Translations under genes and position numbers: made by a program | In this document: one piece after another, positions 45,096-49,001 of the stretch | How the letters are laid out: each line of letters begins with the position of its first letter | Numbering within the stretch: position 1 is the stretch's first letter | Notes under the pieces: model-generated | Seen by the model: only the letters and a program-made list of their open reading frames with translations | The model's database searches: none | Told to the model about the DNA's origin: nothing | Origin: Lutibacter sp. | GTDB taxonomy: Bacteria; Bacteroidota; Bacteroidia; Flavobacteriales; Flavobacteriaceae | Length of the DNA: 49,001 nucleotides | Direction: 5' to 3' | Assembly: GCA_030656195.1 (NCBI GenBank) | Contig: JAUSOJ010000309.1 | Span: 1 to 49,001 of the forward strand

Positions 45096-45115
45096 TTTGT
45101 GATACACATCACAAA
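45096..45115. promoter_or_regulatory. CRP/FNR-type operator before the SulP genes
   Basis: TTTGTGATACACATCACAAA is a perfect 20-base inverted repeat with the core TGTGA-N6-TCACA known for CRP/FNR-family sites. Its centre is 28.5 bases before the first base of the -7 box at 45134, close to -41.5 from a start about six bases after that box. Confidence 0.75.
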
Positions 45116-45133
45116 ACTAAAAATTGTTCAGTG

Positions 45134-45141
45134 TACTTTTG
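45134..45141 (+). promoter_or_regulatory. Predicted -7 box of the SulP genes
   Basis: TACTTTTG fits TAnnTTTG and lies 30 bases before ATG 45171. The -33 spot falls at the edge of the palindrome and lacks TTTG. Confidence 0.6.
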
Positions 45142-45170
45142 TTTGAGTAAAAATTCGAATCTTATTGGCT

Positions 45171-46886
45171 ATGAGTTTAAAAAAAATATTTCCTTTTTTA
45201 ATTTGGCTGCCTTTAGTAAAAAGCACTTGGAAAGATGATTTAATTGCGGGTATTACAGGAACAATTATTGTGATTCCACAAGCTGTTGCTTTTGCTATGA
45301 TTGCCGGTTTACCGCCAATTTATGGTTTTTATACAGCGATGATTACGCCAATAATTGCAGCTTTGTTTGGTTCTTCTTATCATTTAATTTCAGGGCCTAC
45401 CACGGCAATTTCAATTGTGGTTTATTCAACTTTAATCAAATTTGTAAATCCGGAAACAGATCTTGAAGGTTTTATTTCTTTGGCACTCGTCCTCACTTTT
45501 TTAGCGGGTCTTTTTCAATTTGCAATGGGCTTAATGCGTATGGGGAAATTGGTGAATTTTGTTTCACATTCCGTAATTATTGGTTTTACGGCCGGCGCGG
45601 GTATTTTAATTGCGGTTAAACAACTGAGACATGTTTTTGGGATTAAAGTTCCTCAAGGAAGTGCAATTCCCGAAATTTTAAGCTATATCATCGGCCATAT
45701 TTCAGAAACCAATTGGTATGTGTTTATTGTTGCCGTTGGAACTTTAATAATCGCCTTAACAATAAAATTATTGATAAAACCATTGGCAAGATATTATATG
45801 TTAATTGCCATGCTTCTGGGAAGTGTTATCGCAATTTTATTAGGAGGAAGTGCCAATGGCATTGAAACGGTTGGTCACATACCTTCTAATTTACCGCCAT
45901 TTAGAATTCCGGAGTTGACATACACAAACATAAGAGCGCTCAGTTCTGGCGCTATGATATTGGCTTTGTTGGGTTTAATTGAAGCGGTTGCAATCGGTAA
46001 ATCAATTGCATTGCACACACATCAAAAAATTGATGGGGATCAGGAATTTATCGGACAAGGTTTGTCAAATTTTGTGGCAAGTTTTTTCTCAAGTTATGCC
46101 GGTTCAGGCTCTTTTACGCGTTCTGGCGTAAATTATCAGGCCGGCGCAAAAACGCCCATGTCGTCAATTTTTGCCTCTATTTTTTTAATGGCAGTTCTTT
46201 TGTTGTTTGCCAATTACGCATCCTACCTGCCAAAAGCGGCCATGGGCGGAATTATATTGCTGGTAGGTTATAATTTGATCGATTTTCACCACATAAAACA
46301 AGTGTATATCAGCAGTGGCCGAGAATTAATTATCCTGTCCATTACGCTGTTGGGCACCTTGTTTTTTGATTTGGAGTTTGCGTTACTTGCCGGAATAATC
46401 GCTTCCTTTTATTTTTATATGGAACGTACATCTAAACCAAACATTGCTGTATTGGGCTTAAATGCTGAAAACAGATTGGTAAATATGATAAGAGATGAAA
46501 ATGCCAAGGAGTGTTCTAACATAAAAATTATTAGGATTGACGGATCTTTGTATTTTGGGTCTATTGAAAAGATTGCCGATTATTTGGATCATTTATATAA
46601 AGAAAATAAAATTAAACATCTGTTAATTTCTGCGGAAGGCATTAATTTTATTGATTTGGCGGCTGCTGAATGGCTTTCGAATGAAATAATTAATTGGCAA
46701 AAAAACCGTGGCGGAATCTATATTTCGGGATTAAAAATTGTTAGTCAGGATGTGCTTAGAAAAGGTGGATTTATCAACAGAATTGGTGAAAATATTTTTT
46801 TCAAGGATAATAAATCGGCAATTACAGCGATACATAAAAAATTAGACAAGCCTTGCGAAGTAAAAGCATTTGAAGAATGTAAGTAA
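45171..46886 (+). CDS. SulP family anion permease, first copy
   Basis: This 571-residue transporter carries an anion such as sulfate, sulfite or bicarbonate across the inner membrane. The N-terminal SulP fold (about 10-420) has PQAVAFAMIAGLPPIYGFYT and GSGSFTRSGVNYQAGAKTPM. A C-terminal STAS domain (about 440-550) follows. The STAS loop reads FIDLAAAEWL and lacks the Ser of the usual IDSSG. The tail has two Cys (KPCEVKAFEECK). The start is ATG 45171; an in-frame TTG two codons earlier is less likely. The substrate cannot be told from sequence. Confidence 0.92.
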   Translation: MSLKKIFPFLIWLPLVKSTWKDDLIAGITGTIIVIPQAVAFAMIAGLPPIYGFYTAMITPIIAALFGSSYHLISGPTTAISIVVYSTLIKFVNPETDLEGFISLALVLTFLAGLFQFAMGLMRMGKLVNFVSHSVIIGFTAGAGILIAVKQLRHVFGIKVPQGSAIPEILSYIIGHISETNWYVFIVAVGTLIIALTIKLLIKPLARYYMLIAMLLGSVIAILLGGSANGIETVGHIPSNLPPFRIPELTYTNIRALSSGAMILALLGLIEAVAIGKSIALHTHQKIDGDQEFIGQGLSNFVASFFSSYAGSGSFTRSGVNYQAGAKTPMSSIFASIFLMAVLLLFANYASYLPKAAMGGIILLVGYNLIDFHHIKQVYISSGRELIILSITLLGTLFFDLEFALLAGIIASFYFYMERTSKPNIAVLGLNAENRLVNMIRDENAKECSNIKIIRIDGSLYFGSIEKIADYLDHLYKENKIKHLLISAEGINFIDLAAAEWLSNEIINWQKNRGGIYISGLKIVSQDVLRKGGFINRIGENIFFKDNKSAITAIHKKLDKPCEVKAFEECK

Positions 46887-46935
46887 GTTTTTACTTTTTT
46901 ACCCATTAAATCACGCAGTTTATTTTAAGATAAAA

Positions 46936-48672
46936 ATGAATTATAAAAAGATTTTTCCAATTTTAGATTGGTTGCCAAACTATAAAAAGGAATTTTTTAA
47001 AAACGATTTGGGTGCCGGCTTAGCTGTTGGGATTATGCTGATTCCTCAAGGAATTGCCTATGCAATGATTGCTGGATTGCCTCCAATTTACGGATTGTAT
47101 ACGGCTATGATTCCGCAAATGGTATATGCAGTTTTTGGAACTTCCCGCCAGTTATCCGTTGGTCCTGTGGCCATGGACTCACTTATTGTGGCGTCGGGTG
47201 TTGCAACCTTGGCAGAAATTGGCACGGAACATTTTATCGAATTTGCCATTCTACTGGCTTTTATGATGGGTGTTTTGCAGGTGTTATTCGGCATTTTTAA
47301 ATTGGGATTTCTGGTTAATTTTTTGTCTAGGCCTGTTATTAGCGGATTTACTTCTGCGGCCGCATTAATTATTGCTTTAAGCCAATTAAAACATTTGATG
47401 GGAGTTGAGATTCAGCGAAATAATAAAATTCATGGTTTGGTGTTTGATGCTCTTCAACATTTAAAAGACATCAACTTCATAACATTGGCTATTGGCATCA
47501 TTTCAATACTGATTTTGATTTTTTTTAAACAGTTTTCTAAAAAAATACCTGCCGCATTGGTGGTGGTGGTGGTGGGGATTGTCATAGTCAAATTTTTTAA
47601 TTTGGATCAAATCGGTGTTAAAATAGTGGGAGATATCCCAAGCGGATTGCCTGATTTTATAGTTCCTTCTTTTGAAAAACAAACGCTCATTAATTTATTT
47701 CCCATTGCATTAACGTTATCTTTTATAGGTTTTTTAGAAGCAATATCCGTTGCTAAAGCCGTTGAACTAAAGCACAATGATTATAAAGTAATTCCCAATC
47801 AGGAGTTAATTGCACTGGGAATGGGAAATATTGTGGGCTCATTTTTTCAAACATATCCGGCAACGGGCGGTTTTTCAAGAACTGCGGTGAACAATCAGAC
47901 AGGCGCTAAAACGCCTATGGCTTCAATAATTTCAGGAACTGTGGTTGGACTTACCTTGTTGTTTTTTACACCCCTTTTTTACTATTTGCCCGAGGCTGTG
48001 CTGGCCGCAATTATTGTGGTTGCCGTTTTTGGGTTGCTGGACTTTACTGTTCCAAAACAATTGCTGAAATATTCAAAAAGAGAGCTTGTAATTTTAAATG
48101 TCACACTTTTAATTACGGCAACTGTTGGCATAAAAGAAGGTATTTTTGTCGGAGTTATCTTGTCGTTGGGCATGTTGATTTATACAACCACCAAACCGCA
48201 TATTGCGATTTTGGGCAGAATTCCCGACACCCATTTTTACCGGAACATCAAAAGATTTGAAGGATTGCTGATTACTTCCGAAGAAATTTTGATTGTGCGT
48301 TTTGATGCGCAGTTATTTTTTGCCAATGTGCAATATTTTAAAGATAAATTGGAAACCTCCGTAGCAGGAAAAGGAAAAAAATTAAAGTTAATAATCATTG
48401 ATGGTGAGAGTATCAATAGCATTGACAGCTCTGGGGTGTATATGTTAAATGATGTAATCACCAAGTATCGGAGATTAAATGTAGATATCGCCTTTACCGG
48501 AATGAAAGGGCCAGTTCGCGATGTGCTGGAAAAAAGCGGTATTATTAAGAAAATAGGTTATCAAAATTGTTTTTTGAGCATTCAGGAAGCAGTAGATGCT
48601 TTTGAAGAAGGAAAAAAAAGCAAGGATTCAGGAATCAAATTTTCCGATTTTATAAAACAGACAAATAGTTAA
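46936..48672 (+). CDS. SulP family anion permease, second copy
   Basis: This 578-residue paralog begins MNYKKIFPILDWLPNYKKEF and has PQGIAYAMIAGLPPIYGLYT and TGGFSRTAVNNQTGAKTPM. The STAS domain (about 440-555) keeps IDSSGVYML with the Ser that is phosphorylated in related STAS proteins. It lies 49 bases after the first copy, so both share the upstream promoter. ATG 46936 is chosen because an upstream in-frame TTG (46870) would overlap the previous gene and add an unusual tail. The two copies differ enough to serve different anions. Confidence 0.92.
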   Translation: MNYKKIFPILDWLPNYKKEFFKNDLGAGLAVGIMLIPQGIAYAMIAGLPPIYGLYTAMIPQMVYAVFGTSRQLSVGPVAMDSLIVASGVATLAEIGTEHFIEFAILLAFMMGVLQVLFGIFKLGFLVNFLSRPVISGFTSAAALIIALSQLKHLMGVEIQRNNKIHGLVFDALQHLKDINFITLAIGIISILILIFFKQFSKKIPAALVVVVVGIVIVKFFNLDQIGVKIVGDIPSGLPDFIVPSFEKQTLINLFPIALTLSFIGFLEAISVAKAVELKHNDYKVIPNQELIALGMGNIVGSFFQTYPATGGFSRTAVNNQTGAKTPMASIISGTVVGLTLLFFTPLFYYLPEAVLAAIIVVAVFGLLDFTVPKQLLKYSKRELVILNVTLLITATVGIKEGIFVGVILSLGMLIYTTTKPHIAILGRIPDTHFYRNIKRFEGLLITSEEILIVRFDAQLFFANVQYFKDKLETSVAGKGKKLKLIIIDGESINSIDSSGVYMLNDVITKYRRLNVDIAFTGMKGPVRDVLEKSGIIKKIGYQNCFLSIQEAVDAFEEGKKSKDSGIKFSDFIKQTNS

Positions 48673-48695
48673 TATTTTCAAAATATTTTCTGTAA

Positions 48696-48711
48696 TGTGA
48701 TGAAGATTACA
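48696..48711. promoter_or_regulatory. CRP/FNR-type operator before the MBL gene
   Basis: TGTGATGAAGATTACA is TGTGA-N6-TTACA, one base from a perfect inverted repeat. Its centre is 29.5 bases before the first base of the -7 box at 48733, nearly the same as the SulP site (28.5). Confidence 0.65.
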
Positions 48712-48732
48712 AATGAAAGATTATTCATCTTG

Positions 48733-48740
48733 TAATTTTG
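48733..48740 (+). promoter_or_regulatory. Predicted -7 box of the MBL gene
   Basis: TAATTTTG fits TAnnTTTG. The leader to ATG 48870 would be about 124 bases and includes two tiny open frames (48767-48775; 48772-48792). Confidence 0.5.
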
Positions 48741-48822
48741 AGAAACAACATATAAATCAATCAATTATGAAATGAGCTTATTGGATATATGAGGGGAACT
48801 CTGATTAAGATATGCGAATTAC

Positions 48823-48840
48823 TCCCGATAGCTATCGGGA
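48823..48840. repeat. 18-base perfect palindrome in the MBL leader
   Basis: TCCCGATAGCTATCGGGA can fold to a seven-base stem with an AGCT loop. No T-run follows, so it is not a simple terminator. One half occurs at 43987-43995. Confidence 0.6.
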
Positions 48841-48869: not shown

Positions 48870-49001
48870 ATGAAAGTAGAACAATTATTTACTAGCTGTT
48901 TGGCGGAAATGGCTTATTATATTGAGTCAAATGGAGAAGCTGCCATCATTGATCCTTTAAGAGAAACGGAACCGTATATTGAAATGGCAAAAGCCGACGG
49001 C
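48870..49001 (+). CDS. MBL-fold metallohydrolase, N-terminal fragment (persulfide dioxygenase-like)
   Basis: Only 44 residues are in the window: MKVEQLFTSCLAEMAYYI, then ESNGEAAIIDPLRETEPYIE. That opening is typical of ETHE1/Blh-type MBL proteins, which oxidise glutathione persulfide to sulfite, and several carry a rhodanese tail. The metal-binding HxHxDH lies past the edge, so activity cannot be confirmed here. The shared operator with the SulP genes supports a sulfur role. Confidence 0.8.
   Translation, partial: MKVEQLFTSCLAEMAYYIESNGEAAIIDPLRETEPYIEMAKADG

What the first reader, a model, noticed from the sequence alone, without database searches (positions are those of the whole stretch)
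45096..48740. Two matching CRP/FNR operator-promoter units define a small sulfur/anion regulon
Seen: a perfect 20-base palindrome (TGTGA-N6-TCACA core) at 45096-45115 before two SulP genes, and TGTGA-N6-TTACA at 48696-48711 before an MBL-fold gene. The distance from the centre to the -7 box is 28.5 and 29.5 bases. Known: activators of this family placed near -41.5 replace a weak -33 box. Inference: one CRP/FNR-type regulator, probably encoded just past the right edge, switches on anion transport and persulfide removal together. The permeases might export sulfite or take up sulfate made by the oxidation.
Basis: partly seen in the sequence, partly recalled or inferred. Interest (0 to 1): 0.72.

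Follow-up and report, generated by a model that had tools for sequence, protein, structure and literature searches.

The report
Shared switch for sulfide-oxidation genes
A flavobacterium carries the same small DNA switch, set at a fixed distance before the inferred start of transcription, in front of several scattered gene groups that look like a route from sulfide to sulfate, and a little-known relative of the CRP regulator encoded beside one of them very probably works it.

Summary
Two matching operator-promoter units lie at 45098-45141 and 48696-48740. The first is not a perfect 20-base palindrome: two 8-base arms flank a non-palindromic ACAC. With the published place of the flavobacterial -7 box, the operator centres fall at -40.5 and -41.5, the class II activator position. 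The motif alone is near chance (52 sites, control 40). Motif plus box at this spacing is not: 49 exact hits against 2 in 299 Flavobacteriaceae genomes. The regulon is larger than proposed. In this genome the unit also precedes the YeeE/YedE pair and a molybdenum/iron-sulfur/NrfD operon resembling SoeABC. In ten relatives these genes form one cluster with a CRP/FNR gene. The best candidate regulator is not past the right edge but on contig C3, immediately upstream of YeeE. It has Val where CRP has Glu181, which fits the wider consensus TGTRAY-N4-RTYACA. CRP's cAMP contacts are missing, and the pocket holds Cys77 plus a second Cys in 45 of 45 distinct Val-type sequences, which suggests but does not show persulfide sensing. 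Binding and activation are untested. A new CRP/FNR sub-branch and regulon of a known kind.

The parts
45096..45115 (+). operator 1: arms TTTGTGAT / ATCACAAA around ACAC (core TGTGATACACATCACA 45098-45113), centre 45105.5, about -40.5
   Evidence: 13 loci have the RuvB-SulP1 arrangement: 12 carry the unit, the 13th (L073)
45134..45141 (+). -7 box TACTTTTG of the SulP1 promoter; transcript start inferred near 45146
   Evidence: box position -12 to -5 from PMC6847099 (passages)
45171..46886 (+). SulP1, sulfate-permease family with STAS domain
   Evidence: Pfam on the 99%-identical counterpart in L032; ORF, start set at the ATG in frame
46936..48672 (+). SulP2, sulfate-permease family with STAS domain
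   Evidence: Pfam on the counterpart in L032; ORF, start set at the ATG in frame
48696..48711 (+). operator 2: TGTGATGAAGATTACA, centre 48703.5, about -41.5
   Evidence: composite upstream of 33 of 39 MBL-rhodanese genes scored in related loci
48733..48740 (+). -7 box TAATTTTG of the MBL promoter; transcript start inferred near 48745
48870..49001 (+). start of MBL-fold + two-rhodanese protein (470 aa in L032), cut by contig end; persulfide-dioxygenase-like

Best explanation
Each unit is a class II activator promoter. A CRP/FNR-type dimer binds TGTRAY-N4-RTYACA centred at -40.5 or -41.5, where its downstream half-site takes the place of the -33 element, and helps the Bacteroidota sigma-A RNA polymerase at a TAnnTTTG box. 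The activator is most likely the 'V-type' CRP/FNR protein (recognition helix SRVVISR) encoded next to YeeE/YedE on contig C3. A 59%-identical paralogue on C119 may share the work. It switches on a sulfide-oxidation regulon: YeeE/YedE sulfur transport, SQR-like enzymes, an MBL-rhodanese persulfide-dioxygenase-like protein, a SoeABC-like molybdenum enzyme, and SulP anion permeases. In ten relatives these genes sit in one cluster with the regulator. In the window's genome they lie on at least three contigs, and each keeps or has gained its own copy of the operator-promoter. Shown: motif, spacing, gene linkage, conservation. Inferred: binding, activation, the identity of the regulator, the substrates, and the signal, most likely a reactive sulfur species.
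For: Spacing peak at 28.5/29.5 (in-sample); exact composite 49 against 2 control in 299 genomes. Composite (total up to 2 mismatches) within 260 bp upstream of MBL-rhodanese 33/39, YeeE1 10/12, SQR437 10/14, SoeBC-like 12/20, SulP2 14/40, SulP1 12/63; over all 15 gene families scored 103 of 323, against 7 of 1615 for five shifted pairs of spacings, and 1 of 284 other ORFs of 200 aa or more. In the window's genome, the 5 composites with up to 1 mismatch precede SulP1, MBL, YeeE1, the SoeBC-like gene and an OsmC-like gene. CRP-YeeE1-YeeE2-SoeBC-SoeA-SulP1-SulP2-MBL on one locus in ten relatives (L036, L038, L039, L040, L042, L043, L045, L046 without SulP2, L063, L093). None of the 12 SulP1 hits is in a locus with SoeA beside it; all stand after ruvB. 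An operator (up to 3 mismatches with box) lies within 150 bp after the stop of 61 of 78 V-type CRP genes, repeats of some places included. All 40 genomes with an exact composite have a regulator match at E<=1e-40 and none of the 34 without one has a composite (Fisher p 0.0055, not corrected for kinship). Residue 181 is Val (alignment); Glu-type relatives carry G/C at the matching base in 4 of 4 adjacent sites, Val-type sites carry A in 49 of 61.
Against: No binding or transcript data. Of 29 inspected exact composites in the family, 10 lie before a DUF983-like gene, 3 before an unknown family, 1 before a sulfatase-like gene and 3 before no clear gene, so the motif is not used for sulfur genes only. 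The window's nearest relatives use G at position 4 with the same Val helix, so Val181 does not fix that base by itself. A Glu-type CRP/FNR (C3, next to moaA) is also present and could bind the TGTGA-N6-TCACA form. 17 of 78 V-type genes had no adjacent operator at the threshold, among them the C119 paralogue. 51 of 63 SulP1 genes have no operator; one of these (L073) has it, 27 loci have SoeA beside SulP1 and 19 are outside the Bacteroidota by record title. In this genome composites with up to 2 mismatches exceed the control only moderately (8 and 13 against 5 and 7).
Confidence: 0.82

Rival explanations
1. The sites belong to another CRP/FNR protein of the same genome: the Glu-type protein beside moaA (C3:6359-6991) or the C119 paralogue, so that the SulP1 promoter (TGTGA-N6-TCACA) and the MBL/YeeE promoters answer to different regulators.
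For: SulP1 sites are G-type even where the MBL site of the same locus is TGTAAC-type (L073 and L087). The Glu-type protein has the CRP-like SREAVSR helix, and a weak composite (2 mismatches) precedes moeA near it.
Against: A G-type site directly follows the Val-type CRP gene in nine genomes (L160-L168), which links Val-type to G-type sites. No operator follows the two moaA-type Glu genes scored (L022, L169).
Confidence: 0.25
2. The regulator represses from these sites rather than activating.
For: A site over the -33 region could block polymerase.
Against: Spacing to the box is held to 28.5 or 29.5; a repressor does not need so fixed a spacing. The operator covers -38 to -33, so these promoters cannot have a normal -33 element there; 1 of 75 unique exact composites has TTTG in the -38..-26 stretch, a count that is partly so by construction.
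Confidence: 0.07
3. The two palindromes are chance matches in an A+T-rich genome.
For: Core with 1 mismatch: 52 against 40 control genome-wide.
Against: Composite statistics and conservation; kept arms with a varying middle upstream of SulP1.
Confidence: 0.01

Closest known systems
E. coli CRP (CAP) at class II promoters
   Same: Fold, HTH, Arg180 and Arg185 kept; operator near -41.5 replacing the upstream promoter element (geometry of CRP class II promoters recalled).
   Different: Val for Glu181; Ser and Gly at the cAMP-contact positions Glu72 and Arg82 by the alignment (that these residues contact cAMP is recalled); sigma-A with TAnnTTTG instead of sigma-70; sulfur genes as targets.
HcpR2 branch (Rodionov 2005, PMC1274295, passages read)
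   Same: CRP/FNR protein without FNR cysteines; motif GTAACnnnnGTTAC is nearly the commonest form here; the change at residue 181 (Pro) was linked there to the motif.
   Different: HcpR2 regulons in most Bacteroides contained only hcp; Val instead of Pro at 181 here.
Thiol-based sulfane-sulfur sensors (BigR/SqrR, CstR, FisR; recalled)
   Same: Control of SQR, persulfide dioxygenase and sulfur-permease genes; two cysteines as possible sensor.
   Different: Different folds (ArsR, CsoR, sigma-54 activator); no experiment on this family.

Membership tests
CRP/FNR superfamily regulator (C3:8132-8764) | cNMP-binding fold plus Crp-type HTH | tested here: met
   Pfam PF00027 42.4 bits and PF13545 37.4 bits, both over cut-off
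cAMP receptor protein CRP proper | cAMP-contact residues Glu72 and Arg82 | tested here: not met
   aligned to Ser79 and Gly88; NCBIfam CRP model 53.2 bits against cut-off 266
FNR proper | N-terminal Fe-S cysteine cluster | tested here: not met
   the C3 protein has cysteines only at 77 and 90 (sequence)
HcpR2 | Pro at residue 181 | tested here: not met
   Val in the C3 protein; of 52 distinct proteins caught by the helix pattern 45 have Val and 7 Glu
HcpR2 | hcp in the regulon | not tested
   no search for hcp was made
class II activator-dependent promoter | operator centred near -41.5, over the -33 region | tested here: met
   -40.5/-41.5 from box position
class II activator-dependent promoter | activation by the bound protein | not testable with these tools
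   needs transcript or in vitro data
SoeABC sulfite dehydrogenase | Mo catalytic subunit, Fe-S subunit, NrfD membrane subunit | tested here: met
   PF00384/PF01568/PF04879 in 966 aa; Fer4 families + PF03916 fused in 538 aa; the same set is shared with polysulfide/thiosulfate reductases, so it does not settle membership
SoeABC sulfite dehydrogenase | sulfite as substrate | not testable with these tools
   the best solved relative is a thiosulfate reductase entry, 2vpw; direction and substrate rest on context
persulfide dioxygenase (ETHE1/Blh type) | MBL fold with rhodanese domains | tested here: inconclusive
   PF00753 and two PF00581 stretches; NCBIfam Blh model 58.4 bits against cut-off 625

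The most novel reading that the evidence does not exclude
The V-type proteins are a new class of persulfide/sulfane-sulfur sensor on the CRP/FNR scaffold. The former cyclic-nucleotide pocket has lost its cAMP contacts and holds cysteines instead: Cys77 plus Cys83/84 or Cys90 in 45 of 45 distinct sequences, and DTC-x5-CC in all 24 of 30 regulators of a later search that the script could read. Their modification by reactive sulfur turns on the whole sulfide-oxidation regulon across Flavobacteriaceae.
Probability: 0.35. Interest if true: 0.75.

Novelty: new variant of a known kind. Interest (0 to 1): 0.52.

Why it matters
Flavobacteriaceae are a major part of soil, marine and freshwater communities (abstract of PMC9723704), and Flavobacteria are among the thiosulfate oxidisers of marine sediments (passage of PMC12345210). 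My searches of the open-access library listed no paper on how they control this. This gives a candidate regulator, its DNA code, its promoter geometry and a target list that can be tested directly. It also suggests an operator-promoter unit keeping genes together as a regulon after a cluster broke up, and offers a natural set of sites for studying residue 181 of CRP-type proteins.

Tried and rejected
Rejected: regulator past the right edge (none in 9 of 9 relatives within about 8.2 kb; the contig ends at 49001, and its last 122 bases match nowhere else in the assembly). Rejected: the motif core alone as evidence. Rejected: the C82 FNR-like protein as regulator of these sites (helix TATESAIR, N-terminal cysteines; its own 1-mismatch site covers its first codons). 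Not pursued: a structure prediction of the regulator, since the tool's description promises no coordinates for cysteine distances. Papers were seen in passages only: PMC1274295, PMC6847099, PMC9723704, PMC12040651, PMC12345210.

Limits of counts: genes under 33% identity, with a cut 5' end or with under 80 bases upstream were left out, and gene starts were the first possible start codons, CRP genes with under 100 bases after the stop were left out, and no shifted-spacing control was run there. In one search, 29 of the 49 hits were examined (the window's own SulP1 hit makes 30; 19 were not looked at). In one search the script could not read the pocket in 6 of 30 regulators, and some of the 30 repeat earlier ones (L191 is the L039 protein, L194 the L154 place). 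In one search distinct sequences were kept by their last 150 residues (52 of 55), and 28 of the 45 Val-type ones are close Lutibacter orthologues. L022, L101 and L160 are one place and count three times. The motif was refined on the loci later counted. Literature listings were partial: 20 of 57 papers, 15 of 95.
Full report
What is there. The window is one whole 49,001-base contig (C333) of a 2.9 Mb assembly in 336 contigs. The closest named records are Lutibacter (Flavobacteriaceae), with SulP1 99% identical. Operator 1 is TTTGTGAT-ACAC-ATCACAAA at 45096-45115 and operator 2 is TGTGATGAAGATTACA at 48696-48711. The claim of a perfect 20-base palindrome is wrong for the middle four bases; the other 16 positions pair. 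The -7 boxes TACTTTTG (45134) and TAATTTTG (48733) lie 28.5 and 29.5 bases from the centres. In F. johnsoniae the T of TANNTTTG is at -12 (PMC6847099, passages), and the -12 to -5 position is repeated for F. psychrophilum (PMC9723704, passages). The centres are therefore at -40.5 and -41.5, with inferred starts at about 45146 and 48745.

Chance. The core motif with one mismatch is barely above control (52 against 40 in the genome; 3 in the window against 1.45 in shuffles). The composite is not. In the 69 loci (1.04 Mb) the distances from motif (up to 1 mismatch) to TAnnTTTG pile up at 28.5 (35) and 29.5 (37), with 0 or 1 at each other distance listed from 18.5 to 41.5. These loci are related and the motif was refined on them. 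I therefore scanned 299 Flavobacteriaceae genomes: 49 exact composites at 28.5 in 40 genomes, 2 for the reversed pattern. This set is not fully independent: it holds the window's genome and two more of its genus (6 of the 49 hits) and at least one species of the 69 loci (G170). In the window's genome the composites with up to two mismatches number 8 and 13 for the two spacings against 5 and 7 in the control. The five with up to one mismatch all stand directly before genes: SulP1, MBL, YeeE1, the SoeBC-like gene and an OsmC-like gene. The control was not counted separately at one mismatch. Two-mismatch hits include a rhodanese, an OsmC protein (Pfam) and moeA, but also malate dehydrogenase, a norC-like gene and others, and must hold chance matches and sites of other regulators.

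The motif. The commonest form is TGTAAC-N4-GTTACA. In the nine nearest Lutibacter genomes with a site behind the regulator gene (L160-L168) it is G-type; in more distant Lutibacter it is TGTAAC-type, although the last 50 residues of the regulator can be identical (L160 and L170).

The regulon. In ten relatives one locus carries CRP-YeeE1-YeeE2-SoeBC-SoeA-SulP1-SulP2-MBL-rhodanese (L046 lacks SulP2), with SQR-like genes in some. Across the 69 loci the composite (site plus box, up to 2 mismatches in all) lies upstream of MBL-rhodanese in 33 of 39, YeeE1 10 of 12, SQR437 10 of 14, SoeBC-like 12 of 20, SulP2 14 of 40, SulP1 12 of 63, rhodanese lipoprotein 7 of 26, SQR485 3 of 10 and P187 2 of 21, against 0 of 9 CoxA, 0 of 12 RuvB, 0 of 24 SoeA, 0 of 12 YeeE2, 0 of 17 CRP and 0 of 4 MoaE, and 1 of 284 other ORFs of at least 200 aa. 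That is 103 of 323 in all; five shifted pairs of spacings gave 7 of 1615. All 12 SulP1 hits stand after ruvB, as in the window, and none is in a locus with SoeA beside SulP1. In the window's genome the genes of the cluster lie on C3 (CRP, YeeE1, YeeE2), C134 (SoeBC-like, SoeA-like, moaE divergent) and C333 (SulP1, SulP2, MBL), and all three carry the unit. That the one-locus arrangement is the older one is inferred; no tree was built.

What the genes do. Pfam, run on the L032 counterparts, gives sulfate permease + STAS for both SulP proteins, MBL + two rhodanese stretches for the third gene and Pyr_redox_2 for the two SQR-like genes; YeeE1 of C3 is a sulfur-transport protein. The C134 operon is Fer4 + NrfD and molybdopterin oxidoreductase. 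For these proteins NCBIfam scores stay below the curated cut-offs of specific enzymes (SulP2 alone passes the general sulP model), and the best solved relative of the Mo subunit is a thiosulfate reductase entry. The reading sulfide (SQR) to persulfide to sulfite (MBL) to sulfate (Soe-like), with SulP moving the anions, is therefore from context. Whether SulP exports sulfate or sulfite, takes it up, or carries another anion cannot be told.

The regulator. No CRP/FNR gene was found to the right of SulP2 in 9 of 9 Lutibacter-type loci with about 8.2 kb there. The genome has five Pfam cNMP-binding matches and one more CRP-like protein beside moaA. The candidate C3:8132-8764 ends 4 bases before the operator of YeeE1. 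Orthologues of at least 83% identity are in 32 of 35 Lutibacter genomes (my count of its rows). Of 78 V-type CRP genes, 61 have an operator within 150 bp after the stop (up to 3 mismatches with the box, some rows repeat one place). All 40 genomes with an exact composite have a regulator match at E<=1e-40, and none of the 34 without one has a composite (p 0.0055, not corrected for kinship). In the recognition helix Arg180 and Arg185 are kept and Glu181 is Val (alignment). Rodionov and colleagues tied residue 181 to the motif and found GTAACnnnnGTTAC for Pro181 proteins (PMC1274295, passages). Glu-type relatives here have G/C at position 4 in 4 of 4 adjacent sites (4 of 7 such genes have one); Val-type sites have A in 49, G in 11 and T in 1 of 61. 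The 11 G rows are nine genomes of one group, so Val seems to permit both bases.

The signal. Glu72 and Arg82 of CRP align with Ser79 and Gly88, so cAMP is unlikely. Cys77 is present in 45 of 45 distinct V-type sequences, each with a second cysteine at 83, 84 or 90; 28 of these are close Lutibacter orthologues, so the count overstates the independence. In 30 regulators of a later search, all 24 that the script could read have the DTC-x5-CC form. In the alignment the cysteines flank the lost cAMP contacts. A thiol switch for persulfide fits, but so would heme, NO or another ligand: PgRsp and HcpR of Porphyromonas bind heme (PMC12040651, passages).

Against. Of 29 examined family-wide composites, 12 precede sulfur genes (YeeE1 5, SulP2 4, MBL 1, Soe-like 1, TauE 1), 10 a DUF983-like gene, 3 an unknown family, 1 a sulfatase-like gene and 3 no clear gene (DUF983 confirmed by Pfam on one member, the others by reading). 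Either the regulon reaches beyond sulfur or a second regulator shares the code. Nothing here shows binding or activation.

Literature. Searches in the open-access library listed no description of this regulator or regulon. Searches showed only part of their hits (20 of 57, 15 of 95), and subscription papers are mostly not held.

Noticed in passing
window 48824-48839: CCCGATAGCTATCGGG lies in the leader of the MBL gene; it occurs at 30 places in the genome and 0 times for the control pattern: a dispersed palindromic repeat.
   Followed up: partly
L131, L132, L133, L137, L139, L143, L146, L151, L152, L157 (position 1501): The same operator-promoter unit stands before a DUF983-like gene in 10 of 29 inspected hits from other Flavobacteriaceae; in the five whose neighbours I printed (L131, L132, L143, L146, L157) it faces an ABC-ATPase-like ORF. 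Why is unknown.
   Followed up: partly
L134, L135, L144: The unit precedes a small protein of no Pfam family (checked on L134); in L134 and L144 a large ORF that reads like an RND-type efflux protein follows, and in L144 an MBL-rhodanese-like gene points the other way.
   Followed up: no
G000 contig C3:6359-6991 and 809-2080: A second, Glu-type CRP/FNR gene abuts moaA, and a weak composite (TGTGATGTTTGTAACC) precedes moeA: molybdenum-cofactor genes may be tied to the Mo enzyme of the regulon.
   Followed up: partly
G000 contig C100:1786-1830: TATGATAAAAGTCATA with a -7 box at 29.5 before a norC/norB-like pair and after an Rrf2-like gene (by reading): probably the site of another regulator.
   Followed up: no
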